Origin: a virus
DNA: 20,527 nucleotides
Direction: 5' to 3' (one strand)
Virus record (IMG/VR): IMGVR_UViG_3300017725_000103
Location: 1-20,527 of that record
The position numbers and the translations under genes were made by a program. Positions 2,856-20,141 of this stretch are shown one piece after another. Each line of letters opens with the position of its first letter. Position 1 is the first letter of the stretch. The notes under the pieces were generated by a model, which was given only the letters and a program-made list of their open reading frames with translations, was not told the DNA's origin and did not search any database.

Positions 2856-3114
2856 AACCTTGTTTTGAATCTACACTGTTATTATTTTTACTTAAAGATA
2901 AAGCTTCTTTTTCACTTTCTATTCTATTTAAAATCTCAAACGCATCAAATATAGCAAGCTTTTTTGTTGCTGCCGCATTTTTTAATCTATCCGCAGATAT
3001 ATCGTCTTCTGGGTCTGGCTTTATTATATCTTCTTTTGCTACCTTTATAAGTTGCTCTACAGCTCTTCGCCCCGCATTTATAATTTCTAATTTAATTTCT
3101 TCAGTAGATTTCAT
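2833..3114 (-). CDS. Putative terminase small subunit
   Basis: A 93-residue, largely helical charged protein directly upstream of terL and overlapping its start by 23 bases. It contains KPDPEDDISADRLKNAAATK followed by KLAIFDAFEILNRIESEK, and ends GFAERRSK. The predicted long helices, the size and the position immediately before terL suit a small terminase subunit, which recognises phage DNA and delivers it to TerL. I recognise the DISADRLKNAA..KLAIFDAF pattern from genes next to terL in marine Bacteroidota phages, but no helix-turn-helix is obvious. The function is therefore inferred mainly from context. Its ATG overlaps the stop of the preceding gene by four bases, indicating translational coupling. 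Confidence 0.62.
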   Translation of the reverse strand: MKSTEEIKLEIINAGRRAVEQLIKVAKEDIIKPDPEDDISADRLKNAAATKKLAIFDAFEILNRIESEKEALSLSKNNNSVDSKQGFAERRSK

Positions 3115-3674
3115 AAAACCATAGTTATTTGGTGGTCATACATCCTGTAAAGTTTTTTACCATCTAAAGTAAACTTGTATTCACTATCCGGTTTAAAAGA
3201 AACTAAGTCCCCCCTCTTAACGCCTTGTTGTGATAACTTGCTATTTGGGTAAATCATCTTTGCGACTAAAGGCTCCTCCTTTAATGGTTTTAAAATAATT
3301 GATTCTTTTGGAGGTATAGGTTCAACAAAACAATACTTATCATGAGCATACCACTGGTGGATTTTTTTGTACAAAAAGAATTGGTCGTTATCTACTAAAA
3401 ACAAATTTTCCTTAAGAAAACTTTTACCGCTTTTACGCCTTCCTTTTATGTCGTTATAAAATTTAAACACATTATGATGCACAAGCAAAGTGTCGCCTGG
3501 TTCAATTTCTCCACAATACCCTATAGGTGTAGATAAAACTACAGCCTCCCTGTTTGCGGACTCGTAATCTTCTTCAGATGTACTTACTACAAATTCAATA
3601 CCGCCAATTTTTTTGGTGTTATTGTACCTCTTATTATCTTGAGGTTGTACGATAAAACTAAATGGTGATTTCAA
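3111..3674 (-). CDS. Protein with two GroES-like modules in tandem (putative co-chaperonin-like or assembly protein)
   Basis: This 187-residue protein appears to hold two repeats of a GroES-type small beta-barrel. Module 1 (about residues 22-103) has AVVLSTPIG, then IEPGDTLLVHHNVF (57-70) and LFLVDNDQFFLYK (91-103). Module 2 (about 112-187) has KYCFVEPIPPKESIILKP, then QGVKRGDLVSFKPDSEY (150-166), FTLDGKKLYRMYDHQITMVL (168-187). The closing pattern V..GD.V.F......LDG..LY...........L matches how GroES proteins end (VKVGD, then LDGEEYLI, then DDILAVL). Tandem GroES domains are known in chloroplast Cpn20. The gene sits in the packaging block, four bases into its neighbour on each side, so a structural role that merely uses the fold is also possible. 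The fold assignment is inference from pattern, not a database match. Confidence 0.5.
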   Translation of the reverse strand: MKSPFSFIVQPQDNKRYNNTKKIGGIEFVVSTSEEDYESANREAVVLSTPIGYCGEIEPGDTLLVHHNVFKFYNDIKGRRKSGKSFLKENLFLVDNDQFFLYKKIHQWYAHDKYCFVEPIPPKESIILKPLKEEPLVAKMIYPNSKLSQQGVKRGDLVSFKPDSEYKFTLDGKKLYRMYDHQITMVL

Positions 3675-4140: not shown

Positions 4141-7100
4141 TTACGCTAATCTATAGTTTATATATCCTTTTAATCTAAACAAAGCTCCGCTTGTAATAAC
4201 AGAGCCAAGAGATACTGTTGATATTAAATTATTGCTTTGATGTGTTAAACCAACTCTGTTAGATGAGGACTTTGTAAAAGAAACTGGTATTGAATTAGTT
4301 CCTTCTGTATAAGTAAAAACACCCCCTATAGACTCTACCGTGCCTCCAGAAGGAGAACTTGCGATAGCGTAAGGTAATCCTTCTATAAATGGAGAGCCTG
4401 TTGATGATGCCCAAGTAGCAGTGCCCCTAATTTCAAACCAGCATGTTATGGTGTTGCCTATTATGTTATATGTTCCTTGAGGATATCCTGTGGTTGGTAC
4501 AAAATTAAAATTAATGCCACTGCCTAAACCTATGAGCTGAGGAGTCCACATACCTTGATTAATAACTGTACTTCCTGTATTAATTCTTAAGCCTCCATTA
4601 CTTTGGTAGAGACCTCCTGAGGGTATTCCAATAGCAGTTGCAGCTGTATCGTCACTTGCTGAAAACGAAGGTACTGTTGGTAAAATAACTCTTGGCACCT
4701 GAGGTACTGTTCCGCCACTACCACCGCTTATACCGCCTTCTGTTATTAATAAAGCATTTGCGTTTGTTGTTGTGCTACTTCCTACTGCAACTACAAATTT
4801 TGTTTCTCCAAGTCCGTTATTTCGGTCTATTGTTGGATATAATGTAGTATCATTTCTGTAACCTAAAGTCATTGTTTGATTTACCCCTACTAAATCTCCA
4901 CCAATATTGAAATCGTTTCTATGTGGAGTTGATGAAAGGCCTAAATTAGATATACTATATCCAAAGCTAAATGAATTTTGTAAAGTATGCCTTAAATCAT
5001 TATCGTGTCCTATAACAAAACTCAATCCACCACTTGAAGGTGCGGGGCTTCCATCATCAGTTAAAAGCAAATTGTCTGACCCAATTATTAAAGAGTTGTT
5101 TAAACCCGAAAAGTTACTTGGGTATTCATCTCCCATTTGGTTATTTTGACCAATTACGTGAGAGTTATTTGAATATTTTAATATGTTGGTATTACCAACA
5201 TTCATAGAGTTATCAGATTGTATTGTTTCATTATTATTTCCAAATGAAACTGACCTATCAGAATCATTAAGTATTTGATTACCACTACCAACTGTCAAAC
5301 AATGGTCTGAACCATTAACTATATCATTTGAACCACTACCAATAACAAGAGAACTATCATCTACTTGAACATTTGTTGGGTTAGGTGAGATTACCATTCC
5401 ACCCCTAACGTATGCTTTTTGTCTTACTTCTAATGCGACTAAACCCGCATTTAAACCACTACCGACATCTATTTTAGCATTAAATTCGTTTACTCCAAAA
5501 TTTCTTGTTGCATTAAAGTTTCTACTTGAAGAAATATTTATATCTGCTCCGTCATCAGTAATTTGAGAATCTGTTAAATCAGTAGTTGTACTCCAAATTG
5601 GTATAGTATTAACTGTACCTGAACCGCCAACTCCGCCGCCGCCGCCTCCAGAAACAACAGACCAACCGCTATTTTGACGAGCATATTGCTGCCCATCAGT
5701 TGGAGCTTCTGGAAAACTAACTTTTAAATTATTTGTACTTATATCACTTGCTTGTTGTACGCTTATGGTTGTTGTATTGCCAGCTAATGCTTGCCCTGCA
5801 CCTGAACCTATTTCAAGAAAACCACCAATATCAATGTCCCCAAGGCTACCTGTTCTTTCAAGCGTTAAAGTACCACCGCTATAAGTACCCCCGTTTACGT
5901 AGTTGTCAATGTCAACAGCGGAAATTTCAATAACTTCTCCAAAAGCGGTAACCCCTAATGCAAAAGCTGTTGTTCCTGTAATAACTCCAGAACCGTATGC
6001 GTTTAACCTTATATTATCTCCACCAATCGCAACTTGGTCAGCTACGTTATCTATAGCGTCTTTACCAATAGCAACACTCCCCTGGTTTTTTGTCCAAGCG
6101 TTTTCACCTATAGCTACGGATTGATTAGACTCTGCTTTTGCGAGATAACCTAAAGATATACTTCGGTTGCCTAATGTTACGCTTTCAGCTCCTATAGCAA
6201 AAGAGCCCTCTGTGGCATTTACATTTCTTGAAAAAGAAACAGTCTCACCTGCATCTAAAATAAATCCTGGTGAGTTTACAACAATAGTGTATACATCTCC
6301 AGCGGGTGTACCCGAATTAAATGTTGCGCTAACAACTGTATTTATTCTATTGTCTTGAGATTCAGTCCAAGTTTGACTATTAGAGCCATTATTATATATT
6401 GTGTCTCCAGGCTGTATATTAGCTCCCCCTATTACATTTATAAGTTGAAAAGCTGTAGTGGGTATGCCTACTGATGTTTGAATTATACCAGCGGCAATGT
6501 CTGTTACGCTCACGCCTTCTCCTAAAGCGCCTGAACCATGTCCAGAAACAAAACTACCATGACCCGAGGCAAGTCCTTCAGAGCCTACATTAAAAGCTCT
6601 CCAGCCCATAGCAAAAGCACCAAACGACCCTCCCGCTAAAGTTTCAAATCCAAAAGCTGCATTTTCATTAAAATCTGAAATTCCTAATCCAGCTATAGCA
6701 TTGTTTCCAAAAGCTATAGAGTTTTCTGAGTTTGCTCTAACTACTGAATCTTTTCCTGCGGATAAACTGTAATTACCACTTGCAATAGTGTTATCACCCA
6801 TAGCTGTTGAAACATCTCCACTTGCTGTTGTGCTTCTTCCCATTGCTGTTGAAGCAATTCCACTTGCATCTGTAAACGAACCCATTGCTGTTGAAGCAAT
6901 TCCAGACGCTTGGGTATTACTACCTATGGCTGTAGAAATATCTGCGGTTGCTGATGATGAAGAACCCATAGCTGTTGAAGAGCTTCCACTTGCAGTTGTA
7001 AGTTGACCCATTGCTGTAGACCTGTCTCCACTTGCTGTTGTTTGACGCCCCATAGCTGTTGAACCGCCTCCACTTGCTGTTGCGCTTGACCCAGATGCAA

Positions 7101-8769
7101 ATGAATTATCTCCACTTGCTGTTGCACCATTTCCCATAGCTGTAGAGGTCGCCCCACTTGCTACTGTTCCCTGACCCATAGCTGTAGAACGAGTTCCACT
7201 TGCTGTATTAAAGTTAGGGCTATTTAAAACTACAGACTTTATGCTTTCGTTTATAAATACACTTTCAGATGTAATTGTATTCAATTGACTTCCTACAAAT
7301 ATTTTACCTTCAGGTAGATTAGGAACGTCATTCTCTCTTCCTAAAGCAAACACTTCAATATCTCCATTATTTGCATTTGACCTGGAAACAACGGCAATTT
7401 TTTGTATTAAATTGGGAGTAATTGGTTTAACATTTGTAAGACCCCCGTTTGCTGCCACATACAATGAGTCGCCTACACTATAAGAAGCAGTATTAAAATC
7501 AGGGAAATCACCAGCTACAATTATTTCACCGGTAGTGTTTTGAGCTTGATTAGATACCGCTAATCCTATAGCACCCATTTTAGTGGGGTCGGATGCAAAA
7601 GCTTTTTCTACTTCAGTAAGATTTTGACCATTGTTATATCCAGTTATATAAACAGGGTCACCCGCATTTACTGCTTGCGCAAATCTAACCGTCTGTATAA
7701 TTTTTTCAGCGCTTTCTACGTTAAAGGTATTAATATTTTGATATTCTAATTGACCTGAAGAATTAGAAACAAGTACATCATTTTGTGTTCCTAAAGAAGC
7801 ATTGGTGTCTTTAACAGCCCCTTGTAATGAAAGAATAGATTCAATTACTACTTCTTCTCCAGCCCCAGTGCCAATAAAAAGAGTATTATTATTAGGGTCT
7901 TGAATCATAGATACTGGAGCAGCATTACCAAGAACCTTGGAAGCTGTCCACATAGCCATGTTATTTGTTGTTCCCCCACCATCTACAGATGAGTTGTCTA
8001 TCTTATCCCAGAATATATTACCAGCATCATCTTCAGATATAATAGCCCAGTCACCAGGACTCCATTGAGTTATTGGAGTTGTTTGGCCCTGCAACGAAGC
8101 TGTTCCCGCTGTAGAAACTACCCAGTATTTACCAGTGTTTCCAGCTATTAGTTGTATGTTTTGAAGATTTGGATTACCTCCATCGGTAATACCACCCTCA
8201 GCAATTGTTCTCGCATCCCAAGCTCCTTGAAACTCAAGACCTGAACCCTGAAAGTTTTGCCAAGTTACATTACCCAAAGAATCAGAAACTAATACTTGTT
8301 CATTGTTTCCAGCAAAACTATTAGCATCATAAATTTTTCCAAGTAAATATAAATTAGCATCTGGGTTTATTGTTGCGTTTGTTTTAAAGAAAGCATCACC
8401 TTCAAAAGTAGACACACCAAATGGAGTAAAAGCATCTGCTATTATTAAGCTTCCAGCGCCTGAGCCATTATCTATAGTTACGGTTGTACCTAAAACAGCT
8501 GACCCAGACTGCTGAGCTGTATCTTGACTTATAAGAGAGCTTACTATTTTTTCAGAATCAGCTCCTGCTGACGCTGCAGTAAACACGGGTATTCTATATG
8601 AAACCCCATCAAAAAGTCCATCAATGATAAAATCTTTTAGGTCAGATATTGTAAAAGTTTTAGTCTGCTTCTCAATTGGAGAAGAGTCTGCGTCTGTACC
8701 TATTAAATAATCCGCACCCTGTATTGGTGATGCTTCAGGGTACGAAAGTTTATCACTGATTTTTGACAT
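4141..8769 (-). CDS. Tail fibre A: very long adhesin with YadA-like head repeats
   Basis: A 1542-residue virion fibre expected to mediate host attachment. Residues 1-55 form an anchor module (YLIGTDADSSPIEKQTKT) shared with tail fibre B. Residues about 520-690 carry about ten 14-residue repeats of the YadA/Hep_Hag head type (consensus STAMG..T.ASG.), which fold as trimeric left-handed beta-rolls in bacterial adhesins. A second, more diverged set (..S..FGN...I..SDNS..VGN) spans about 1150-1257. A Gly-rich linker lies near 1040 (SGGGGGGVGG), and a DDTAATAIGIPSGGLYQSNG motif lies near 1375-1395. The last roughly 130 residues (from MWTPQLIGLG) form a beta-rich tip, the likely receptor-binding or trimerisation domain. 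No enzymatic motif was seen. It follows the 76-aa coiled-coil gene by five bases. Function is inferred from architecture. Confidence 0.88.
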   Translation of the reverse strand: MSKISDKLSYPEASPIQGADYLIGTDADSSPIEKQTKTFTISDLKDFIIDGLFDGVSYRIPVFTAASAGADSEKIVSSLISQDTAQQSGSAVLGTTVTIDNGSGAGSLIIADAFTPFGVSTFEGDAFFKTNATINPDANLYLLGKIYDANSFAGNNEQVLVSDSLGNVTWQNFQGSGLEFQGAWDARTIAEGGITDGGNPNLQNIQLIAGNTGKYWVVSTAGTASLQGQTTPITQWSPGDWAIISEDDAGNIFWDKIDNSSVDGGGTTNNMAMWTASKVLGNAAPVSMIQDPNNNTLFIGTGAGEEVVIESILSLQGAVKDTNASLGTQNDVLVSNSSGQLEYQNINTFNVESAEKIIQTVRFAQAVNAGDPVYITGYNNGQNLTEVEKAFASDPTKMGAIGLAVSNQAQNTTGEIIVAGDFPDFNTASYSVGDSLYVAANGGLTNVKPITPNLIQKIAVVSRSNANNGDIEVFALGRENDVPNLPEGKIFVGSQLNTITSESVFINESIKSVVLNSPNFNTASGTRSTAMGQGTVASGATSTAMGNGATASGDNSFASGSSATASGGGSTAMGRQTTASGDRSTAMGQLTTASGSSSTAMGSSSSATADISTAIGSNTQASGIASTAMGSFTDASGIASTAMGRSTTASGDVSTAMGDNTIASGNYSLSAGKDSVVRANSENSIAFGNNAIAGLGISDFNENAAFGFETLAGGSFGAFAMGWRAFNVGSEGLASGHGSFVSGHGSGALGEGVSVTDIAAGIIQTSVGIPTTAFQLINVIGGANIQPGDTIYNNGSNSQTWTESQDNRINTVVSATFNSGTPAGDVYTIVVNSPGFILDAGETVSFSRNVNATEGSFAIGAESVTLGNRSISLGYLAKAESNQSVAIGENAWTKNQGSVAIGKDAIDNVADQVAIGGDNIRLNAYGSGVITGTTAFALGVTAFGEVIEISAVDIDNYVNGGTYSGGTLTLERTGSLGDIDIGGFLEIGSGAGQALAGNTTTISVQQASDISTNNLKVSFPEAPTDGQQYARQNSGWSVVSGGGGGGVGGSGTVNTIPIWSTTTDLTDSQITDDGADINISSSRNFNATRNFGVNEFNAKIDVGSGLNAGLVALEVRQKAYVRGGMVISPNPTNVQVDDSSLVIGSGSNDIVNGSDHCLTVGSGNQILNDSDRSVSFGNNNETIQSDNSMNVGNTNILKYSNNSHVIGQNNQMGDEYPSNFSGLNNSLIIGSDNLLLTDDGSPAPSSGGLSFVIGHDNDLRHTLQNSFSFGYSISNLGLSSTPHRNDFNIGGDLVGVNQTMTLGYRNDTTLYPTIDRNNGLGETKFVVAVGSSTTTNANALLITEGGISGGSGGTVPQVPRVILPTVPSFSASDDTAATAIGIPSGGLYQSNGGLRINTGSTVINQGMWTPQLIGLGSGINFNFVPTTGYPQGTYNIIGNTITCWFEIRGTATWASSTGSPFIEGLPYAIASSPSGGTVESIGGVFTYTEGTNSIPVSFTKSSSNRVGLTHQSNNLISTVSLGSVITSGALFRLKGYINYRLA
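6780..7205 (-). repeat. 42-bp tandem coding repeats (YadA-type head units) in tail fibre A
   Basis: About ten consecutive units with an exact 42-bp period encode 14-residue STAMG-type repeats. On the plus strand each unit starts near cccatagctgttgaa (for example 6797, 6839, 6881, 6923, 6965 and 7007) and carries tccacttgctgttg. All units remain in frame, so gain or loss of a unit would lengthen or shorten the fibre without a frameshift. One unit (near 7090) encodes ASG instead of AMG. Confidence 0.92.
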
Positions 8770-9031: not shown

Positions 9032-9039
9032 CAAAGATA
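9032..9039 (-). promoter_or_regulatory. TAnnTTTG -7 element upstream of the coiled-coil/tail fibre A genes
   Basis: The minus strand reads TATCTTTG, a match to the Bacteroidota -7 consensus, 26 bases before the ATG of the 76-aa gene and inside a 40-base non-coding gap. No good TTG -33 box was found at the usual spacing, so this is a candidate only. Confidence 0.5.
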
Positions 9040-10741: not shown

Positions 10742-10999
10742 TTACCACAATGATATAATGTCGGTTGCAGTTGTATTAGTTGCAAATACTTTTACGACTT
10801 GCACTGGAACAAATGAGCCCGTTGGTAAATTTTTAAATACAACATCATCACCGCCAGCTGTTTCAACTCTTACATCACCGCCAACTCCAACATAGAGAAC
10901 ACAACCATTGTTTACTCCACCTGAAATAGAAGGAATAGTGTCAGTATCACTTGGGGTAACTATTGAGGCTCTTCCTGCTTGTAATTTTTGATACGCCAT
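10742..10999 (-). CDS. Spike-base-like small virion protein
   Basis: An 85-residue beta-rich protein with GGVNNGCVLYVGVGGDVRVE and ETAGGDDVVFKNLPTGSFVP, then VQVVKVFATNTTATDIISLW at the C terminus. The pattern VLYVG.GG.V.V.TAGGD.V.FKN.P.G.F.PVQV.KV...TTATDI..LW is one I associate with the spike-base family named after the Rhodobacter gene transfer agent (RCAP_Rcc01079-like), common in tailed phages. It would sit at the distal tail tip. It begins one base after the previous stop. Confidence 0.75.
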   Translation of the reverse strand: MAYQKLQAGRASIVTPSDTDTIPSISGGVNNGCVLYVGVGGDVRVETAGGDDVVFKNLPTGSFVPVQVVKVFATNTTATDIISLW

Positions 11000-11000
11000 T

Positions 11001-11156
11001 TTATTTGTTATATGGGAATTTTCTATTTAAACTATCTCTACGCTCACCACATCCGCAGGGCTTCCCTGTTGCCTTGCTTACAGTGTCGACAACCTTCTTA
11101 ATACCAGTTGCGGTAGTTATTTTTTCGATGGTATCTCCTAATCCTCTTGATTTCAT
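11001..11156 (-). CDS. Microprotein with CGCG motif (51 aa)
   Basis: Reads MKSRGLGDTIEKITTATGIK, then KVVDTVSKATGKPCGCGERR and DSLNRKFPYNK. The CxC pair (CGCG) followed by basic residues could bind a metal, but this is not demonstrated. I recall very similar GLGDTIEKIT..TGIKK...C.CG.RR..LN..FP sequences in Bacteroidota phages, without known function. I choose the ATG at 11156 because it forms an ATGA overlap with the preceding gene; an in-frame ATG nine bases earlier (11165) would add MQK. Confidence 0.8.
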   Translation of the reverse strand: MKSRGLGDTIEKITTATGIKKVVDTVSKATGKPCGCGERRDSLNRKFPYNK

Positions 11157-11293
11157 TTTTTGCATGTACACAATTTATTTGGACAGCTATCTATCTTAAA
11201 CATAAGTTTAGATATTAGCCAATTCCATTTGCATTGAAACTTACTCCAAACGCTTTGCATCCAGAGACCTATTTTTACAAAGAGCTTGCCCAT
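11153..11293 (-). CDS. Trp-rich microprotein with C-terminal CxC motif (46 aa)
   Basis: Reads MGKLFVKIGLWMQSVWSKFQ, then CKWNWLISKLMFKIDSCPNK and LCTCKK. The first 33 residues form an amphipathic Trp-rich helix with basic residues that could lie on a membrane; the tail has C...C.C spacing. Its ATG shares one base with the preceding stop (TAATG), and its stop overlaps the next start (ATGA). It is too short for ordinary gene calling. Function unknown. Confidence 0.78.
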   Translation of the reverse strand: MGKLFVKIGLWMQSVWSKFQCKWNWLISKLMFKIDSCPNKLCTCKK

Positions 11294-11514
11294 TACTTTT
11301 TAATTAAAGAACCTAAGTGCGCGTGAACTTTCCCGTCTTTAATACACTGATGCTCATAACTCATAGAATGGTCTCCGCCATAAGCATGACCATAATCTTT
11401 TTTAGACATTGCTTTAGATTCATCACGTCTGTCTTTCATAGACTGACTATGCTTACCTTTGTGTTTCGCTCCTAAAGACTCATCGAGTCTTGAATTATAA
11501 CCTTGTTTTTTCAT
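11293..11514 (-). CDS. Lys/His-rich small phage protein (73 aa)
   Basis: Begins MKKQGYNSRLDESLGAKHKG, continues KHSQSMKDRRDESKAMSKKD, and ends with a His-containing tail (GDHSMSYEHQC, GKVHAHLGSLIKK). Highly charged and probably disordered. The opening MKKQGYN.RLDESLG and SMKDRRDES pattern is one I recognise from several marine phages, without a function. A TAnnTTTG-like octamer lies only four bases upstream. Confidence 0.78.
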   Translation of the reverse strand: MKKQGYNSRLDESLGAKHKGKHSQSMKDRRDESKAMSKKDYGHAYGGDHSMSYEHQCIKDGKVHAHLGSLIKK

Positions 11515-11518
11515 ATTA

Positions 11519-11526
11519 CAAAGATA
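11519..11526 (-). promoter_or_regulatory. TAnnTTTG-like octamer between two microprotein genes
   Basis: The minus strand reads TATCTTTG in the 12-base gap before the 73-aa gene. It matches the Bacteroidota -7 element, but a transcript from it would begin at or inside the start codon (leaderless), so it may be chance. Confidence 0.3.
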
Positions 11527-11817
11527 CTAATATTTTCCTTTCCTACTTTTTGGAGATGACTTGGTAGAACCCCCTTTACCTGCCCATAGATTTTTACAAG
11601 CCCAATATCTTGCAGTTAGTTTAGATTTGGCGGTATCACATTTATGTCGAGCTTTAAATGACTTGCGTGCTGCAGCAGAATAGTTGTGCCCATATCCTTT
11701 AGCTCCAAAGTGAATAAGCTTCTCTTTACCGCCCTCACACGCCTTTACCATTTTCTTTTTTCCAGCCCTGTCGCTTGGTCTAACGACATTGCATTTCATT
11801 TTGCTTTTATCTGCCAT
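11527..11817 (-). CDS. Lys/Cys-rich protein with FGAKGY domain like that of large DNA viruses (96 aa)
   Basis: A strongly basic 96-residue protein with KLIHFGAKGYGHNYSAAARK, then SFKARHKCDTAKSKLTARYW, ACKNLWAGKG and a Lys/Ser tail. The pattern K.I.FGAKGY..Y......R..F.ARH.......LTA.YW...LW resembles a small domain of unknown function (DUF5754-like, from memory) found in giant and other large eukaryotic DNA viruses as well as in phages. Four Cys residues might pair or bind metal. A virion-associated nucleic-acid-binding role is a guess from the charge. It starts one base after the preceding stop. Confidence 0.75.
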   Translation of the reverse strand: MADKSKMKCNVVRPSDRAGKKKMVKACEGGKEKLIHFGAKGYGHNYSAAARKSFKARHKCDTAKSKLTARYWACKNLWAGKGGSTKSSPKSRKGKY

Positions 11818-11818
11818 A

Positions 11819-12061
11819 CTATGCGTTTCTTACTCTTGCCGCAGAAGTGTTAGATACAAATTGAGTACCCTTGCTCCCTGCTTTCTTTTTTTTTCTGGCT
11901 GTTGCGGCCAATTGTCTTTTTGATAAACTACGAGCTTTTGCTAACGGCAAACAACGGTCAGGATTCTTCTTGTTTTTAGAAGTACCACAAGCCCCTTTTA
12001 TCTTTCCGTCAGTACCAATGCGAACCCATTTTTGGTCTCGCCATTTCTCAAGCTCACCCAT
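11819..12061 (-). CDS. Basic small protein with DUF5872-like domain (80 aa)
   Basis: Begins MGELEKWRDQKWVRIGTDGK and continues IKGACGTSKNKKNPDRCLPL, then AKARSLSKRQLAATARKKKK. The KW....DGK..G.CG......P.RC.P..KA pattern resembles a domain (DUF5872-like, from memory) found in phages and large eukaryotic viruses. It has two Cys residues, is very basic, and probably binds nucleic acid or sits in the virion; function is not established. Its ATG shares a base with the preceding stop (TAATG). Confidence 0.75.
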   Translation of the reverse strand: MGELEKWRDQKWVRIGTDGKIKGACGTSKNKKNPDRCLPLAKARSLSKRQLAATARKKKKAGSKGTQFVSNTSAARVRNA

Positions 12062-12408
12062 TACAGCATTCCTTGTTGTCTACGCTGAAGTCTTTTTATT
12101 TTTCTTTCAGCAGCTCTTCTTGATATATTTCTCTCAGAGCTTCTTCCGTTTCTATTTTTTAAAACAGTTCCACCTGATGGTGTAACATTTATTTGTTTAA
12201 ACACAGAAGTACTCTTCCCGTTTTTATTTTTTATTTTTGTTTTGCTTGCAGAAGAACCGTCTGGGTTTGTTGATATACTGTTCTGTCTAAACTTGCTCTT
12301 ACTTGCGTATCCATTTCTGGTCATTCTATTTGATGAAGTATAAGAAGACCTGGAAGTAACATAATTAATATCCTTGTCTCTAAAACCTATGTCCCCGTGC
12401 TTTTTCAT
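12061..12408 (-). CDS. Basic low-complexity protein of unknown function (115 aa)
   Basis: A Ser/Asn/Lys/Arg-rich protein starting MKKHGDIGFRDKDINYVTSR, with a Lys-rich middle (SKTKIKNKNGKSTSVFKQ) and an Arg-rich helical C terminus (ERNISRRAAERKIKRLQRRQ). No family was recognised. Probably largely disordered and nucleic-acid binding by charge. It overlaps the preceding 58-aa gene by four bases (ATGA) and the next by one. Confidence 0.7.
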   Translation of the reverse strand: MKKHGDIGFRDKDINYVTSRSSYTSSNRMTRNGYASKSKFRQNSISTNPDGSSASKTKIKNKNGKSTSVFKQINVTPSGGTVLKNRNGRSSERNISRRAAERKIKRLQRRQQGML

Positions 12409-12581
12409 GCTGTTGTTTTTCTTTTTTTCATTTTACGAACTCTGTCTGGATTGTATGACTGACCAGATGGCCCAACTTTAAACTTAGACTTAAGCTTTTT
12501 AATATCTTTATTTCTCATAGGGATTTCATTCTCATTAAGAGGCCCCATCTTTCCGTAATTCTTGTGTCCTGGGAATGGCAT
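12405..12581 (-). CDS. Lys-rich microprotein (58 aa)
   Basis: Reads MPFPGHKNYGKMGPLNENEI, PMRNKDIKKLKSKFKVGPSG, QSYNPDRVRKMKKRKTTA. The stop overlaps the next start in ATGA, supporting translation as a real gene despite its length. It is preceded by the same A/T-rich leader (aataatt before ATG) as its neighbours. No function recognised. Confidence 0.75.
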   Translation of the reverse strand: MPFPGHKNYGKMGPLNENEIPMRNKDIKKLKSKFKVGPSGQSYNPDRVRKMKKRKTTA

Positions 12582-12583
12582 AA

Positions 12584-12691
12584 TTATTTCTTTTTCTTTT
12601 TCTTAAGAGCCACAAAATCTGCAGCAGTTATTTTATTTAAAGGCATAGCTGCTCTCGCAATCTTTCTTTGTCCTTTGCTTAACTTACTCAT
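12584..12691 (-). CDS. Lys-rich microprotein (35 aa)
   Basis: Reads MSKLSKGQRKIARAAMPLNK, then ITAADFVALKKKKKK. A short basic helix followed by a six-Lys tail. It overlaps the 23-aa gene by four bases (ATGA) and ends two bases before the next start. I recall similar 'GQRKIARAA.P.NKIT..DF..LK' short proteins in marine phages, with no known role. Confidence 0.72.
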   Translation of the reverse strand: MSKLSKGQRKIARAAMPLNKITAADFVALKKKKKK

Positions 12692-12759
12692 TTCTTTTTC
12701 TTTTTATACATTGTTTTAGTCTTGGGTTTAGCCTTTGACTTTTTTTTACCGTATGCCAT
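12688..12759 (-). CDS. Ultra-short Lys-rich microprotein (23 aa)
   Basis: Encodes MAYGKKKSKAKPKTKTMYKK plus three more Lys. Thirteen of 23 residues are Lys. It is supported as a gene by its leader (identical to that of the 58-aa gene), a two-base gap to the previous stop and an ATGA overlap with the next start. Similar MAYGKKK microproteins occur in marine phages as far as I recall. Function unknown; the charge suggests nucleic-acid contact. Confidence 0.65.
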   Translation of the reverse strand: MAYGKKKSKAKPKTKTMYKKKKK

Positions 12760-12761
12760 AA

Positions 12762-12920
12762 TTATTTCTTTTTAGCTCCTTTAGCGTAGTTAGGGTCTTT
12801 ACAATACTTGCTTGCCGCCATATTAGCGTAAGCTGAAGGGTACTTATCAAATGTACGCTTCGCCCACGCAATACCGGCGGGGCATATTTTATTTCCTTTT
12901 GTTCGTCCTTTTTTTGCCAT
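12762..12920 (-). CDS. Basic microprotein with two Cys residues (52 aa)
   Basis: Reads MAKKGRTKGNKICPAGIAWA, KRTFDKYPSAYANMAASKYC, KDPNYAKGAKKK. The KICPAGIAWAKRTFD..PSAYAN.AASKYCKDPNYAK pattern is one I associate with conserved small phage proteins. The two Cys residues could form a disulfide or bind metal. It starts seven bases after the stop of tail fibre B and is not similar enough to its neighbours to call a duplicate. Confidence 0.78.
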   Translation of the reverse strand: MAKKGRTKGNKICPAGIAWAKRTFDKYPSAYANMAASKYCKDPNYAKGAKKK

Positions 12921-12927
12921 AATTATT

Positions 12928-15900
12928 TTAGGTATTATCTATAAGAAATACGGGTCCTGTATAATTTGGTAGAATAGTTGGCCTTGTTAAAAAAGTCCAA
13001 GATGCTCCAAAATCACTGCTTAAATAACCACCAGATGGATTACCTATACGCTGGATAAATATAAACTGACCTGTGTTCGACATAGACGTACCGTAATTTC
13101 CTGATACTCCGTTTACTACTGTAAATGTAGCCCCATAATCAGAGCTAATGTAAAACCCAAATTGACTTCCGCCAGCGACATATTGACCATCATAGCTTTG
13201 TTTAAGCCTATTGTCAGGGCTGATGCTTACTTGATTAGAAAGTTTCCAAGTTTCTCCAAAATCATCTGAATATTGATTTCGTAAGGTTGAGAAGCTGCTT
13301 GTAGGCCCCACAGCAGTTACATACTGTCCTGTTCCTGAACATGATGTGTCTAATAAGTTATACCTGTCGCCAAACATATTGTTTGAAACTATATCCCAAG
13401 TTACGCCAAAATCAGTAGACCTTACAATATATCCATTGGTAGCGTTTGGGTTAGTATCATCACTTATTCCAACATAAATATATTGGCCATTACCTGACAT
13501 AGAAGGGGATTCGGCTCGTTCAAAGTTTATACCTGCTGGAAGTAATGCGTCAAATTTAGTAGCTTGGTCTGTCCATGTTGAACCAAAATCATTAGAAACC
13601 CAAAAATTGTGTCTTGTGGAGACGCTTGTGTTAATGGTTACCATCACCTTGCCGCTTTTTGACATTTTTGTAAATGCGGGTGAACCTCCAAGTATACCAG
13701 GTATAGTTGCCCAACTAACGCCGAAATCCGTTGTAAGAGATAGAGAACTGCTGGCGGAGCTTGAGTCTGATGCTAATCCGTATTCAAAATCATCACTTGC
13801 CGCAACAAAGCCTTCACTGTTTGTAGTTGCGCCAAATGATACTGGAGGTGCGGTAATATTTAAAGAACTATCTAATAAAGCAACGTATGGGCTTCCTGAT
13901 TGCCCCGACAAAAACGTAGCGTTTGCTCCTTCTACAGGTACATAATCGTCAATTGGAAATCCTACGTCTACTATAAACGTTGGCCCATCACCTACGTTCC
14001 CAGCGTTCGTTGTAGCCGTCCATGTTAATCCTCCATCTGTTGAGTAATTGTAAGCTGGAGTGGGGTCACTTGAATCTGTGCCTATTATTGTTAGTCCAGA
14101 GTTAGAGGTTCTAACATTTGGAGCTTGTATACCGGTGCGCGATGATTGAGGTAATGAAAATGCAAAATTAGAGCCGTACCATTGTATGGTATTAAAATTA
14201 TTTCCTGAAATTGTATAATATTTACCATCAGTATTTTGAGCAACCCCACTACTTCCTATTACAGAGGAAATAGTATCAGATAAGCCTGAATAATCTTTTT
14301 GACTCCAGAGCTGTCCATAATCAGTTGATTGATAAGAGTTGGCATAGGTAAAAGAAGAAGTGGCGTTTATAAGTGTGATATACTCACCTTTTCCTGATAT
14401 CATACCAACTATCCCAGAGTTAGTTAAACCGCCTGTGATAGCATCAGTTGATACAAAAGAAGCTCCATAATTAGTGGAATAAAAACTTTTGTTTAAAGCA
14501 CCAAAATTAGGGTCTTCTAACCTGAGGGTCATAAATATAAACTTACCTCCTGCAGACATATCTATTTGACGTATATCAATTATATTTGACCAAGTATTTA
14601 ATGGAGGTAATATAATTATATTTAGCTCTGACCAAGCCGCCATTCCGTTACGTGATATAATTAATCTTCTATCAGTAACAGGCTCTCCTACATTTATCAA
14701 GGAAATAACTACATTTCCTGATTTTGACATTTTTGTTTTTGACCAAGATGTTCTATCTGCTTGCCCTAACACCTGTACGTTTACATTTGTAAAAGTTTGT
14801 CCACTATCAACAGATTGTAATGCTGTTAATGGATTGGTCGTATCTCCTGTAACAATCATTTTTGTGAAGTCATCACTTACTCCAGCTAAATGATAACCAG
14901 AGGGTATGGTTGCAAAAGGGTTTGGCGGAGTTAGAGGGTTAAAATCTAAATCGTACAACTGTATTTGAGAACTTGCGTTTGTTTTTATTAGCCTTGCCTG
15001 CCCTTCAATAGGGTTGTAAGGGTCTTCATTAGAAGACGCAATTACAGTACCTGATACTACTTGTTGTACGTTTTGGTTTGTCGCTTGATAAGTCCCTGTT
15101 GGGTTAGTTGCTGTAAATGGATTAGATGCTTCAAACTGAAATCCTGCATTAACATTTGCTCCCGTTACAAAGGCGTATGTATCAACAAAAGGTTGACCTG
15201 TTTGCTGTGCACCTTGTAAATCTCCAGTTAACGTATAATTAGGCGCTCCAGCAGTATTATCTACAATATTGTTTACAAGCGGTGTCATTGTAACTGTTAC
15301 ATCAGAAACAGGTACAATAGTACCCCCTACTGTTTGTGTTACATTTTGGTTGGTCGATGAAAAAGTTCCAGAAGGGTCAGTTGCTGTAAATGGATTATTT
15401 GTGTCAAATGCAAATCCAGGGTCTACAGTGACTCCTGTAGTAAAAGAATATGTTCCAACAAATGGCTGTCCAGATTGAGTAGCCCCATCTTGGTCTCCAG
15501 TTAAAGTGTAATGTGGGCCGCCTGGCTCGTTATCTACAATATTATTTACAAGCGGCGTCATGGTTACAGTAACATCAGAATCTGGGATAATTTTTCCAGC
15601 CAACACTTGCTCTACGTCTAAGTTGTTACCAGGTATAGTTCCAGATGGATTTGTTGGATTAAACGGATTGTTAGTGTCAAACCTATATCCTTGGTTTGGA
15701 GTTACCACAGTTGTGAACGCATAGACCGTACCTTGCTGACCAGTTATAGTATCGCCCTGTAAATTACCAGTAATAGTATAGTTTGGCGCACCTGGATTTA
15801 AGTCTACGATATTATTTGTTAAAGGTGTCATAGTCACCACAAAATCGTTTGGTGGAAGCGGAACAATAGTTCCTGTAAGTTCTCCATTTACAGTCGCTCC

Positions 15901-17115
15901 ACCCACCGGTATTAGCCCTGATGGATTAGTAGAAGCAAAAGCTGGGTCAAACTCAAATCCTTGGTTAGCAACTCCTGTGGTTAAGAACTCATAAGATGTA
16001 CCTACTGTACCAGTCACTGTCGAACCATTTTGAGCACCACTTAATTGATAGTTAGGCGCTCCAGGCTCGTTGTCTACAATTGAGTTTGTAAGATTTAATA
16101 CAACAGTATATTCAGTTGGCTGAATATCTGGCTGTACAATCATAAGTATTCCTGGCACATTAAGCGGGTTTTCCGCAGTACCATCTGTTTGATATACGTC
16201 TCCATCTGTTAACCCACCATTTGTGGCCGCTACGTTGTCCGCAAATATAGGACAATCAGTAAGCGTTAAACTTTTTGCTTCTAAATGTCCGGCTAATTCC
16301 GAAGGAACATCTAATGTGCTTTTAATAAATTTTGTTGTTGTGGCAACGGGAACTGTGTCTTTTGTTTCTAAATAAGTAAACTCTTGAATATTATTAGAGT
16401 TTGTTACTGAAGTTCTCATACAGATTCCGTAACCTTCATCTACTGTTGAGCCATTAAAACTTAAATCAATTAAATGGCCATAAGCATAATTTACAGTTGA
16501 AGAAGGAGCAGTAATGTCGATAGTACTCTGCGTACCTATAGCATTAGTTATATTTCCTGTATGCGTGTTTGAATTTAAGATTGATTGGTTATGTGCTCCA
16601 CCAACTACACCAACAATTTTTTGTCCACCTTGTTGTAGTTTAGCAACATTAACCGAGCCGTAAATCCCATTGCTTATTGTGGCATCAGCAATTGTAGATA
16701 AATCTACAAGGTTATATGTACCGTAAATCTCTCCAATAGGGTCTGTTCCGTTGTAAACTATTCTATTAAATGTTCCATAAAATAAATCGTTTGGAGATTC
16801 AGTACCTGGTGCGTGGCCGCTTTTTGTTACAAAGTTATATATACCTACTTGGTCTGAAGAAGTGTAGTTGTTACTAATTACAGCAACATTACTATTATAA
16901 GGATTATCACAAGAGTTTACATTTTGAAGTACAATATAAGGGCTACAAAGTCCCTCTCCGCCACTACCATTTATATAACCAGCAAGCTGGTTTACAGTAA
17001 CAGTTTTAGTCTGCTTCTCTATAGGGTTTGAATCAGCATCTGTTAAAACTAAATAGTCACTCCCAGATAAATTACTGATAAGCGGATATGCCTCTTGATT
17101 ACTTATTTTAGCCAT
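12928..17115 (-). CDS. Tail fibre B: anchor + Ig-like repeats + tandem Asp-box propellers
   Basis: A 1395-residue virion fibre. Residues 1-52 are the same anchor module as in tail fibre A (SDYLVLTDADSNPIEKQTKT). Residues about 60-290 are beta-helix-like (YGTFNRIVYNG, IYGTYNLVD). FADNVAATNGGLTDGDVYQT lies near 291-310. About 336-690 holds four repeats of roughly 90 residues (V.MTPL.NNIVD..PG.P.Y.L.G). About 698-1395 has ten Asp-box motifs (S.D.G.TW/F, for example STDYGQLW, STDGGLTW, SDDFGETW) in two homologous halves, indicating two sortilin- or BNR-type beta-propellers. No sialidase catalytic Arg triad or RIP motif was seen, so glycan binding is more likely than hydrolysis. Function is inferred from architecture. 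Confidence 0.86.
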   Translation of the reverse strand: MAKISNQEAYPLISNLSGSDYLVLTDADSNPIEKQTKTVTVNQLAGYINGSGGEGLCSPYIVLQNVNSCDNPYNSNVAVISNNYTSSDQVGIYNFVTKSGHAPGTESPNDLFYGTFNRIVYNGTDPIGEIYGTYNLVDLSTIADATISNGIYGSVNVAKLQQGGQKIVGVVGGAHNQSILNSNTHTGNITNAIGTQSTIDITAPSSTVNYAYGHLIDLSFNGSTVDEGYGICMRTSVTNSNNIQEFTYLETKDTVPVATTTKFIKSTLDVPSELAGHLEAKSLTLTDCPIFADNVAATNGGLTDGDVYQTDGTAENPLNVPGILMIVQPDIQPTEYTVVLNLTNSIVDNEPGAPNYQLSGAQNGSTVTGTVGTSYEFLTTGVANQGFEFDPAFASTNPSGLIPVGGATVNGELTGTIVPLPPNDFVVTMTPLTNNIVDLNPGAPNYTITGNLQGDTITGQQGTVYAFTTVVTPNQGYRFDTNNPFNPTNPSGTIPGNNLDVEQVLAGKIIPDSDVTVTMTPLVNNIVDNEPGGPHYTLTGDQDGATQSGQPFVGTYSFTTGVTVDPGFAFDTNNPFTATDPSGTFSSTNQNVTQTVGGTIVPVSDVTVTMTPLVNNIVDNTAGAPNYTLTGDLQGAQQTGQPFVDTYAFVTGANVNAGFQFEASNPFTATNPTGTYQATNQNVQQVVSGTVIASSNEDPYNPIEGQARLIKTNASSQIQLYDLDFNPLTPPNPFATIPSGYHLAGVSDDFTKMIVTGDTTNPLTALQSVDSGQTFTNVNVQVLGQADRTSWSKTKMSKSGNVVISLINVGEPVTDRRLIISRNGMAAWSELNIIILPPLNTWSNIIDIRQIDMSAGGKFIFMTLRLEDPNFGALNKSFYSTNYGASFVSTDAITGGLTNSGIVGMISGKGEYITLINATSSFTYANSYQSTDYGQLWSQKDYSGLSDTISSVIGSSGVAQNTDGKYYTISGNNFNTIQWYGSNFAFSLPQSSRTGIQAPNVRTSNSGLTIIGTDSSDPTPAYNYSTDGGLTWTATTNAGNVGDGPTFIVDVGFPIDDYVPVEGANATFLSGQSGSPYVALLDSSLNITAPPVSFGATTNSEGFVAASDDFEYGLASDSSSASSSLSLTTDFGVSWATIPGILGGSPAFTKMSKSGKVMVTINTSVSTRHNFWVSNDFGSTWTDQATKFDALLPAGINFERAESPSMSGNGQYIYVGISDDTNPNATNGYIVRSTDFGVTWDIVSNNMFGDRYNLLDTSCSGTGQYVTAVGPTSSFSTLRNQYSDDFGETWKLSNQVSISPDNRLKQSYDGQYVAGGSQFGFYISSDYGATFTVVNGVSGNYGTSMSNTGQFIFIQRIGNPSGGYLSSDFGASWTFLTRPTILPNYTGPVFLIDNT
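15030..16115 (-). repeat. Four Ig-like coding repeats (about 270 bp each) in tail fibre B
   Basis: Units recur at 270-273 bp, seen for example at the TMTPL codons near 15284, 15557 and 15827, with a more diverged first unit near 16100. The middle copies are the most alike at DNA level (acaatattatttacaagcgg and close variants), suggesting recent expansion. The protein unit is a roughly 90-residue beta domain of the kind often repeated in phage fibres. Confidence 0.85.
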
Positions 17116-17285: not shown

Positions 17286-17293
17286 TATCTTTG
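17286..17293 (+). promoter_or_regulatory. Plus-strand TAnnTTTG element for the winged-helix/SET genes
   Basis: TATCTTTG lies 24 bases before the ATG at 17318. No clear TTG -33 box at 17-23 bases; the upstream half would lie inside the 53-aa gene on the other strand. Confidence 0.5.
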
Positions 17294-17296
17294 TGA

Positions 17297-17325
17297 CAAA
17301 GTTACAAAATTTAATTTATGTCAAA
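17297..17325 (-). promoter_or_regulatory. Minus-strand promoter (TTTG - N17 - TAnnTTTG) for the structural operon
   Basis: On the minus strand TTTG (17325-17322), then exactly 17 bases, then TAACTTTG (17304-17297), a full match to the Flavobacterium -33/-7 arrangement. The ATG of the 53-aa gene is 16 bases downstream, giving a short leader. The -33 box lies inside the first codons of the winged-helix gene, so binding of a regulator there could affect both directions. This is the best-formed promoter in the window. Confidence 0.68.
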
Positions 17326-17755
17326 TCGAAATCACGACTACCTAAAATATTGGCGTGTCATCAGGTATTTTATCAAAGCTAAGTACAATTTAACACAGGC
17401 TGATTTAGATATATTATTCTTTTTATATTCAGAATCTTATTTTTCAAAAGATAGATTTGACGAGTTTGATGAGCTATTATCTTGGAATGTAAATAGATTC
17501 GATAATCTACTTCGTGATGGTTGGATTGAAGTATTTAGAAAACGCTCTGGCAAAACAAAAGGACTATATCAACTTTCTTACAAAGCTGTTAGATTGATAA
17601 GTTCTACTTATAAAAAACTGCAAGGAGAAGAAATACCCACAAGTCAATCAGCTAACCCTATATACGCTAAGAACGTTTCTTATTCAGATAAGGTTTATAA
17701 AAACTTTATAACTGAAATGAACAGGGAGCTAAAACAAAAAAAGCATGAAGACTAA
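17318..17755 (+). CDS. Winged-helix (MarR-like) DNA-binding protein
   Basis: A 145-residue protein whose central part reads NLTQADLDILFFLYSESYFS, KDRFDEFDELLSWNVNRFDN, LLRDGWIEVFRKRSGKTKGL, YQLSYKAVRLISSTYKKL. This is a winged-helix layout: helix (LTQADLDILFFLY), recognition-type helix (about 58-70, ending LLRDGWI), and a wing (VFRKRSGKTKGLYQLS). MarR-type repressors share this order. The C-terminal 40 residues are polar. It is divergent from the structural operon and lies at its promoter, so control of that promoter is a reasonable but unproven inference. It overlaps the SET gene by 11 bases. Confidence 0.72.
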   Translation: MSNRNHDYLKYWRVIRYFIKAKYNLTQADLDILFFLYSESYFSKDRFDEFDELLSWNVNRFDNLLRDGWIEVFRKRSGKTKGLYQLSYKAVRLISSTYKKLQGEEIPTSQSANPIYAKNVSYSDKVYKNFITEMNRELKQKKHED

Positions 17756-18125
17756 TCCTTATGATATAGAGTTTGTATACAATGAGCTTGGGTGTACAAA
17801 AGAACAACTTGAAGAGCTAACTCATACAGGAAGTGTTATTGAAATAAAGTCTGACTTTTTTAAAAGAGGTGTGTCTGAAATTCATGGATATGGAATGTTT
17901 GCTCAAAAAGATATTGAAAAAAATCAATACATTGGAATGGCATCTATAGATAATAAATATAAAACATATTTAGGTAGATACGTAAATCACTCAAGGAGGG
18001 CTAATATAAAATTTATATTTACCGATACAGGAGATTTAATAACAAAATCTATTAAAGAAATAAAAAAGGGGGAGGAATTGTTTGTTGATTATACAAATCA
18101 CTTTTTAACTCCTGAGTATTTATAA
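17745..18125 (+). CDS. Minimal SET-domain protein (putative protein lysine methyltransferase)
   Basis: SET enzymes transfer a methyl group from S-adenosylmethionine to lysine. The 126 residues show SEIHGYGMFAQKDI (44-57, the SAM-binding GxG-type start), RYVNHSRRANIKF (78-90, the NHS pseudoknot motif) and KKGEELFVDY (107-116, ending in the catalytic-type Tyr116). The usual SET-I insert between the GxG and NHS motifs is very short and there are no pre- or post-SET Cys clusters, so this is a minimal domain. The substrate is unknown; a phage or host Lys-rich protein is possible given the cassette nearby. It overlaps the winged-helix gene by 11 bases and its stop overlaps the groES stop by six bases on the opposite strand. 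Confidence 0.85.
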   Translation: MKTNPYDIEFVYNELGCTKEQLEELTHTGSVIEIKSDFFKRGVSEIHGYGMFAQKDIEKNQYIGMASIDNKYKTYLGRYVNHSRRANIKFIFTDTGDLITKSIKEIKKGEELFVDYTNHFLTPEYL

Positions 18126-18377
18126 TACTACAACAACGTCCCTTAATTGAATGATGGTAAACTTTTCGTTTTCAATGAGCATTGTGTACCCTCGGCTTTC
18201 GTCATAATAAATAGTGTCTCCTTTCTTAACTACAGAAACTTCATTGCCTGGCTCTATAACTTTTCCCTTTTGATATCTAAACTTACTTGTATCGTCTGAA
18301 GATAAAAGTAATCCAGATTCTGTTTTTACATCTTCCTTTATCTGATTGATAAGAATATTTGTTCCAATTACTTTCAT
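18120..18377 (-). CDS. groES: GroES-like co-chaperonin, divergent
   Basis: The 10-kDa lid of the GroEL chamber. The 85-residue protein (about 95-97 usual) has the expected order: MKVIGTNILINQIKED (first strands), KTESGLLLSSDDTSKFRY (mobile loop with hydrophobic tripeptide LLL, about 18-35), GKVIEPGNE, then VVKKGDTIYYDESRGYTMLI, and the closing IIQLRDVVVVL. The GroES roof loop is shortened, as in small phage co-chaperonins. Encoded two genes after groEL in the same direction, with an ATGA overlap to the membrane microprotein. The assignment is strong from fold pattern and context. Confidence 0.88.
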   Translation of the reverse strand: MKVIGTNILINQIKEDVKTESGLLLSSDDTSKFRYQKGKVIEPGNEVSVVKKGDTIYYDESRGYTMLIENEKFTIIQLRDVVVVL

Positions 18378-20133: not shown

Positions 20134-20141
20134 CAAAGATA
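20134..20141 (-). promoter_or_regulatory. TAnnTTTG -7 element for the chaperonin operon
   Basis: The minus strand reads TATCTTTG 24 bases before the groEL ATG, the same spacing as in the plus-strand element at 17286. No clear TTG at the expected -33; the upstream DNA is a run of TA repeats. Confidence 0.55.

What the first reader, a model, noticed from the sequence alone, without database searches (positions are those of the whole stretch)
11001..12920. Cassette of tiny, overlapping, mostly Lys-rich genes between the tail modules
At least nine ORFs of 23 to 115 residues are packed with one- to four-base overlaps (ATGA, TAATG). Most are highly basic; several have Cys pairs. Four or five are too short for normal gene finders. 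Such a dense cassette inside a virion operon suggests packaged DNA-binding proteins, or early-acting peptides injected with the genome.
Basis: partly seen in the sequence, partly recalled or inferred. Interest (0 to 1): 0.62.

Follow-up and report, generated by a model that had tools for sequence, protein, structure and literature searches.

The report
Travelling kit of basic head peptides
Ten tiny, strongly positively charged genes sit head-to-tail in a marine Bacteroidota phage; several belong to protein families that unrelated phages (and, for one family, giant viruses) also keep beside their head-building genes, which suggests they work inside the virus head, perhaps on the packaged DNA.

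Summary
The cassette is real. Ten minus-strand ORFs (23-115 aa) cover 1903 of 1920 bases with ATGA/TAATG overlaps or 1-2 nt gaps (one 12-nt gap). All are basic (net +7 to +22). Seven recur in relatives under purifying selection (pN/pS 0.09-0.30, tighter than neighbouring holin or fibre genes). g2, g4 and g5 are local additions.

Three are identifiable. g7 is a Tlr6F/DUF5754 relative, a family of unknown function in polinton-like viruses, virophages, giant viruses and phages. g6 is related to DUF5872. g1 is PHROG 27331. g1-g6 form a fixed couplet: 80 of 80 g1-bearing contigs of other phage groups carry g6 just downstream, yet share no non-cassette window gene.

The Tlr6F domain is fused to XkdF-type head proteases (ICP1 gp125, Aeromonas 4L372D gp127) and sits inside a portal-MuF protein (CL131 ORF012; 50% identity to g7), which a paper reports in purified virions. 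A stand-alone copy lies between minor head protein and scaffold in KBS-S-2A.

Best reading: small basic proteins acting inside the head, comparable to T4 internal proteins. Head association is supported by context and fusion; packaging of these peptides, DNA binding and injection are untested.

The parts
12762..12920 (-). g1, 52 aa, 'KxCPxGxAxAKRxFxxYPSAYAN...C' family (PHROG 27331), basic, two conserved Cys
   Evidence: PHROG 3.8e-24; pN/pS 0.09 in 55 relatives; fixed upstream partner of g6 in other phages
12688..12759 (-). g2, 23 aa, 52% K+R; 2-nt gap after g1; few relatives
   Evidence: 3 relatives aligned, no stops, pN/pS 0.14
12584..12691 (-). g3, 35 aa, poly-Lys C-terminus; ATGA overlap with g2; homologue also in pelagiphage HTVC106P
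   Evidence: 17 relatives; HTVC106P 67%
12405..12581 (-). g4, 58 aa, basic; lineage-specific
   Evidence: 4 loci, one of them the window's own copy
12061..12408 (-). g5, 115 aa, pI 11.7; ATGA overlap with g4; a variable insertion, missing from the nearest relative L002
   Evidence: one homologue, 74% (L032)
11819..12061 (-). g6, 80 aa, DUF5872-related (PHROG 23735); TAATG overlap with g5; invariant C25, C37, W7, W12
   Evidence: pN/pS 0.23
11527..11817 (-). g7, 96 aa, Tlr6F/DUF5754-related; predicted three strands then two helices
   Evidence: pN/pS 0.12 in 80 relatives
11519..11526 (-). TATCTTTG, Bacteroidota -7 promoter-like box in the only real gap of the cassette, upstream of g8
   Evidence: all four TATCTTTG copies of the window are intergenic; TAnnTTTG upstream of g8 in 16 of 33 relatives, 0.5 expected
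11293..11514 (-). g8, 73 aa, basic, His-rich
   Evidence: 49 relatives, pN/pS 0.30
11153..11293 (-). g9, 46 aa, Trp/Cys-rich with hydrophobic N-terminal half; TAATG overlap with g8
   Evidence: 51 relatives, pN/pS 0.30
11001..11156 (-). g10, 51 aa from ATG 11156, 'GLGDTIxK...CGC..R...LN..FPY'; ATGA overlap with g9
   Evidence: 74 relatives; start corrected; homologues in MW202828, Nonlabens P12024S/L and Microcystis Mel-JY01
12928..17115 (-). upstream neighbour, 1395-aa tail-fibre-like protein, very acidic; probable head of the transcription unit
   Evidence: -33/-7-like match at 17325-17297
10742..10999 (-). downstream neighbour, 85-aa tail fibre protein
   Evidence: PHROG 12296, 5.7e-12

Best explanation
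A module of small, basic, late-expressed proteins that act inside the phage head. Shown: the genes are real and conserved; the g7 (Tlr6F-type) domain is fused to head proteases, sits inside a portal-MuF protein and lies beside scaffold genes in unrelated phages; g1 and g6 travel as an adjacent pair that in other phages lies between portal or scaffold and major capsid genes. Inferred: g7 and its partners enter the procapsid through contacts with scaffold or portal, stay with the packaged genome, and use their Lys/Arg-rich surfaces to bind and partly neutralise the DNA, like T4 internal proteins. Some may leave with the DNA at injection.
For: Basic charge and purifying selection. CL131 ORF012 = Phage_portal_3 60-419, Tlr6F about 533-604, Phage_Mu_F 991-1103; BLASTP with g7 50% identity, 2e-19; the paper lists portal ORF012 among LC-MS/MS virion proteins (PMC6293099). 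ICP1 gp125: S78_2 protease 37-160 then Tlr6F 184-261, gene order portal-gp126-protease-scaffold-decoration-coat. Aeromonas 4L372D gp127: Tlr6F 84-150 then S78_2 176-287, two genes after portal. KBS-S-2A: stand-alone copy between MuF minor head protein and PHROG 206 scaffold, then coat. P-SCSP2: scaffold, g1-like, DUF5872, DUF6321, MCP. 80 of 80 g1-seeded contigs carry g6 downstream on the same strand, 54 carry DUF6321, usually with portal upstream or GroES/MCP downstream, and share no non-cassette window gene.
Against: No stand-alone cassette peptide is known from a virion; I found no proteomics for any phage that carries g1/g6. In CL131 and ICP1 only the fused forms are known, and MS of CL131 ORF012 does not show that the Tlr6F segment stays attached. 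In the window the cassette lies between fibre genes, not head genes. No PDB relative or DNA-binding fold was found for g7 or g6. A paper's introduction says basic proteins are not known to contribute much to neutralising phage DNA (PMC3281028). In HTVC008M and immuto the g7 relative is not next to recognised head genes.
Confidence: 0.5

Rival explanations
1. Head-assembly factors rather than DNA packers: the Tlr6F domain is a docking module for scaffold, portal or procapsid wall, and the other peptides are transient core or portal-vertex proteins removed or left behind at maturation. The basic charge serves protein-protein contacts with acidic scaffold or fibres.
For: The domain's partners are a head protease and a portal-MuF protein, both placed in the procapsid. 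Local gene order is portal-protease-scaffold or MuF-Tlr6F-scaffold-coat. No DNA-binding fold found.
Against: Does not by itself explain why nearly every member, including unrelated g1, g3, g6 and DUF6321, is so basic. Conserved Cys pairs and poly-Lys tails look more like nucleic-acid ligands (inference).
Confidence: 0.28
2. Late-expressed peptides that never enter the virion: host-takeover, anti-defence or nucleoid-acting peptides parked in the late operon as accessory genes (morons).
For: Variable content: g2, g4 and g5 are lineage-specific, and other genes are inserted between members. g8 onward probably has its own promoter. Cassette often lies beside endolysin and holin genes.
Against: g1, g6 and g7 are more constrained than holin and fibre genes, and g7 occurs as a domain of head proteins in several phage groups.
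Confidence: 0.17
3. The Lys-richness is mostly a by-product of A-rich ribosome-binding sequence in an AT-rich Bacteroidota phage: each gene's AAA/AAG-rich 3' end serves as leader of the next.
For: The poly-Lys C-termini of g1, g2 and g3 directly precede the next start.
Against: Charge is spread over whole proteins and conserved in aligned cores with Arg, Trp and Cys. Other genes on the same strand have 3-19% K+R.
Confidence: 0.05

Closest known systems
Tlr6F / DUF5754 (PF19058)
   Same: g7's syntenic counterpart in elemo phages scores 44 bits against a cut-off of 27.4; 23 of 101 g7-like proteins match; the g7 model matches predicted proteins of a marseillevirus and an iridovirus. The literature calls Tlr6f a small conserved protein of PLVs, virophages, Megavirales and some phages, without known function (PMC4642659).
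   Different: g7 itself scores 21.4 bits, below the cut-off. No earlier description was found of the head-gene context and fusions reported here.
DUF5872 (PF19197)
   Same: g6 aligns with pelagiphage and cyanophage proteins, some of which match DUF5872 (5 of 89 aligned, best 5e-14); invariant W and Cys positions.
   Different: g6 itself has no Pfam match; the link is through intermediates.
T4 internal proteins IPI-IPIII and the prohead core
   Same: Comparable in proposed role: small proteins placed in the procapsid in hundreds of copies with protease and core; IPI is injected (PMC9958956).
   Different: No sequence link; T4 targeting peptide and protease processing not examined; virion presence of cassette peptides unknown.
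PBCV-1 virion DNA-binding proteins
   Same: Basic proteins packaged with viral dsDNA (PMC3281028).
   Different: No homology tested or claimed; the same paper contrasts this packaging with that of bacteriophages.
Basic cassettes of pelagiphages HTVC106P, HTVC027P, HTVC023P, phage 023Pt_psg01 and cyanophage P-SCSP2
   Same: Same g1 and g6 families, sometimes with g3 or Tlr6F, as tightly packed or overlapping tiny basic ORFs.
   Different: DUF6321 is often added there and absent here; the location is in the head gene block rather than between fibre genes.

Membership tests
Tlr6F / DUF5754 | Sequence similarity over the Tlr6F domain | tested here: met
   Ortholog at the same place in elemo phages 2.2e-11, above cut-off; 23 of 101 aligned relatives match
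Tlr6F / DUF5754 | Curated Pfam score reached by g7 itself | tested here: inconclusive
   E 0.00027, 21.4 bits against 27.4; links run through closely similar orthologs
Tlr6F / DUF5754 | Fold shared with giant-virus proteins | tested here: met
   BFVD match to Tunisvirus V9SE36 (E 2.2e-3, TM 0.57) and Chloriridovirus W8QE68; model pLDDT 80.6; modest scores
DUF5872 | Profile match | tested here: inconclusive
   g6 itself no match; 5 of 89 aligned relatives match, best 5e-14
PHROG 27331 (g1) | Profile match | tested here: met
   3.8e-24; P-SCSP2 and HTVC106P homologues match the same family
T4-type internal head proteins | Small and basic | tested here: met
T4-type internal head proteins | Packaged in the mature head | not testable with these tools
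   needs virion proteomics
T4-type internal head proteins | N-terminal capsid-targeting peptide cut by the prohead protease | not tested
   no prohead protease identified in the window, which is a fragment
HU/IHF, MC1 or histone-type packaged DNA-binding proteins | Known DNA-binding domain | tested here: not met
   no such Pfam match for any of the ten at E up to 1; no convincing PDB match for g7, g6 or g1

The most novel reading that the evidence does not exclude
Tlr6F, DUF5872, DUF6321 and the 'YPSAYAN' peptides form a mix-and-match kit of virion genome-organising proteins, in effect phage protamines, exchanged among unrelated tailed phages and shared in part with polinton-like and giant viruses. 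Tlr6F would be the part that docks to the portal/scaffold core.
Probability: 0.27. Interest if true: 0.85.

Novelty: new variant of a known kind. Interest (0 to 1): 0.56.

Why it matters
Tlr6F has been known for years as a protein conserved across polinton-like viruses, virophages, giant viruses and phages without a function. The fusions and gene order here tie it to portal, head protease and scaffold, and so make a concrete, testable placement. If the basic partners are packaged too, the view that tailed phages neutralise packed DNA with little help from proteins would need a second look for a very common group of aquatic phages.

Tried and rejected
Pfam on the ten proteins: only a sub-threshold DUF5754 match for g7 and weak chance-like matches (DUF2683, PRR22, DUF1547) that I discard. 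PHROG 220 'minor head protein and DNA pilot' at first looked like a match to a MuF protein; it proved to be the Tlr6F segment of the CL131 portal-MuF protein. The GR11A label 'Peptidase_S78_2' is probably carry-over from fused relatives: that 118-aa protein has no protease match. A distant-relative search from alignment A2 failed for lack of conserved stretches. No Foldseek PDB match at E <= 0.001 for g7 or g6, and at best Z 2.2 by VIA-align; this does not show the folds are new. Sequence search of the PDB gave only matches that look like chance. Virion MS for cassette peptides was sought in papers on P-SCSP1u, cyanopodoviruses, cyanomyoviruses, pelagiphages and Baltic Flavobacterium phages without success. 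No Rfam family in the window. Hits in bacterial MAGs are mostly phage contigs binned with them.

Full report
WHAT THE WINDOW IS. A 20.5-kb virus record from a podovirus-like phage. Its nearest named complete relative is MW202828 (TerL 76% identity) and its cultured relatives are Flavobacterium elemo phages (46%) and Cellulophaga phages. The minus strand reads GroEL and GroES, then a 1395-aa fibre-like gene, the cassette, an 85-aa tail fibre gene, amidase, holin, a 1542-aa fibre-like gene, a GroES-like gene and terminase.

Ten ORFs cover 1903 of 1920 bases on one strand with ATGA, TAATG or 1-2 nt junctions; one 12-nt gap lies before g8. Residue-weighted K+R is 27% against 8% for the other 17 genes, and every cassette protein is net positive, +7 to +22. 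Since an open 104-aa frame also exists on the other strand, I relied on conservation. Among 80 relatives chosen by similarity to g7, homologues of g1 (55), g6 (60), g7 (80), g8 (49), g9 (51), g10 (74) and g3 (17) evolve with pN/pS 0.09-0.30, against 0.34 for GroES, 0.44 for the small fibre and 0.47 for holin. Synonymous sites are near saturation, so true ratios are probably lower still. g2, g4 and g5 are local; g5 is missing from the nearest contig, L002. g10 starts at the ATG at 11156, not at the listed GTG.

ORDER AND TRANSCRIPTION. In relatives the order g1>g6>g7 holds in 53 of the 55 contigs in which all three are found, always on one strand, with fibre and other genes inserted between members. 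All four copies of TATCTTTG, a form of the Bacteroidota -7 box (TAnnTTTG; consensus from general knowledge), fall in the 523 intergenic bases of the window. TAnnTTTG lies within 60 nt upstream of GroEL in 22 of 23 relatives, of the gene after holin in 43 of 50 and of g8 in 16 of 33, but in at most one relative for g6, g7, g10, the small fibre, amidase or GroES. So g1-g7 probably share the fibre gene's transcript and g8 onward can also start separately. This is inference from motifs.

THE FAMILIES. g7: the counterpart at the same place in elemo phages matches DUF5754 above the curated cut-off, and 23 of 101 relatives match it at E 0.001 or better; g7 itself is below the cut-off. DUF5754 is the Tlr6F protein (PMC12220804), described as conserved in nearly all polinton-like viruses, several virophages, many Megavirales and some phages, with no detectable similarity to domains of known structure or function (PMC4642659). 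The AlphaFold model (pLDDT 80.6) has three strands and two helices and matches predicted viral proteins labelled XkdF and ChaB, ICP1 ORF125, and a marseillevirus and an iridovirus protein. g6 is linked to DUF5872 through pelagiphage and cyanophage intermediates. g1 is PHROG 27331.

THE MODULE TRAVELS. Eighty viral contigs found with the pelagiphage g1 all carry g6 on the same strand; in 59 of 80 the junction lies between a 4-nt overlap and a gap of at most 2 nt. Fifty-four also carry DUF6321 and nine Tlr6F. None has a detectable homologue of any of the 17 non-cassette window proteins. Pelagiphage HTVC106P has g7-, g3-, g1- and g6-like genes within 1.3 kb. Contigs were sampled by g1 similarity and are not independent lineages, so 80 of 80 is a description, not a probability. 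Many show portal, then holin, g1, g6, DUF6321, GroES, and further on major capsid protein. In P-SCSP2 the small genes fill the space between scaffold and major capsid protein.

THE HEAD LINK. Four contexts, in unrelated phages, put the Tlr6F domain with head proteins. (1) CL131 ORF012: Phage_portal_3, then a segment 50% identical to g7 (BLASTP 2e-19), then Phage_Mu_F; its authors report this portal among LC-MS/MS virion proteins (PMC6293099). (2) ICP1 gp125: XkdF-type protease followed by the domain. (3) Aeromonas 4L372D gp127: the domain followed by the protease. The opposite order in 2 and 3 suggests separate fusion or rearrangement events. (4) KBS-S-2A: stand-alone gene between MuF minor head protein and a PHROG 206 scaffold. 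Contexts that do not help: HTVC008M and Flavobacterium immuto.

MECHANISM. Portal, MuF, head protease and scaffold meet inside the procapsid (established phage biology), so the simplest reading is that Tlr6F works there. With nine further basic peptides in the same late region, I favour a set of head-internal proteins that sit with the packaged DNA, like T4 internal proteins (PMC9958956). The step from 'head' to 'DNA' rests on charge alone. A pure assembly role is the main rival. I put head association near 0.7, DNA contact inside the head near 0.45 and injection near 0.3; these are judgements.

NOVELTY. The families are catalogued; what I did not find described is the travelling g1-g6 couplet, the cassette as a unit, and the ties of Tlr6F to portal and head protease. 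The literature held here is partial (open-licence papers only), so prior mention elsewhere cannot be excluded.

Noticed in passing
9032-9039, 11519-11526, 20134-20141 (-); 17286-17293 (+); 17297-17325 (-): Bacteroidota -7 boxes (TATCTTTG) confined to intergenic DNA, with the TAnnTTTG motif upstream of GroEL and the post-holin gene in most relatives; supports a Bacteroidota host and maps likely promoters.
   Followed up: yes
17745-18125 (+): SET-domain protein (PF00856, 3.7e-12) beside GroES, found in only a minority of relatives: a possible phage protein-lysine methyltransferase next to a cassette of Lys-rich proteins.
   Followed up: partly
3111-3674 and 18120-18377 (-): A GroES-like protein upstream of terminase in addition to the GroES-GroEL pair; pelagiphage relatives of the cassette also have a GroES gene close to it.
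   Followed up: no
L289:4957-6222: Cyanomyovirus S-MbCM6_093 (T4-GC_110), between gp16 and gp17, ends in a DUF6321 domain (1.1e-20): another basic family fused into a protein of the virion gene region.
   Followed up: partly
L094:3168-3293: P-SCSP2 basic peptide between scaffold and major capsid protein resembles an EF-hand (9.4e-6, just under the cut-off): a possible calcium-binding basic head peptide; similar sequence in HTVC023P.
   Followed up: no
L297-L316: Close Tlr6F relatives appear in MAGs labelled Nitrosomonadaceae, Aliivibrio, Maricaulis and others, mostly on contigs with this phage's other genes: phage DNA binned into bacterial genomes.
   Followed up: partly
4141-8769 and 12928-17115 (-): Two very large acidic fibre-like proteins (net charge -68 each) share an N-terminal segment (compare MSKISDKLSYPEAS and MAKISNQEAYPLIS, both followed by DADS-PIEKQTKT) and flank the basic cassette and lysis genes.
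   Followed up: no
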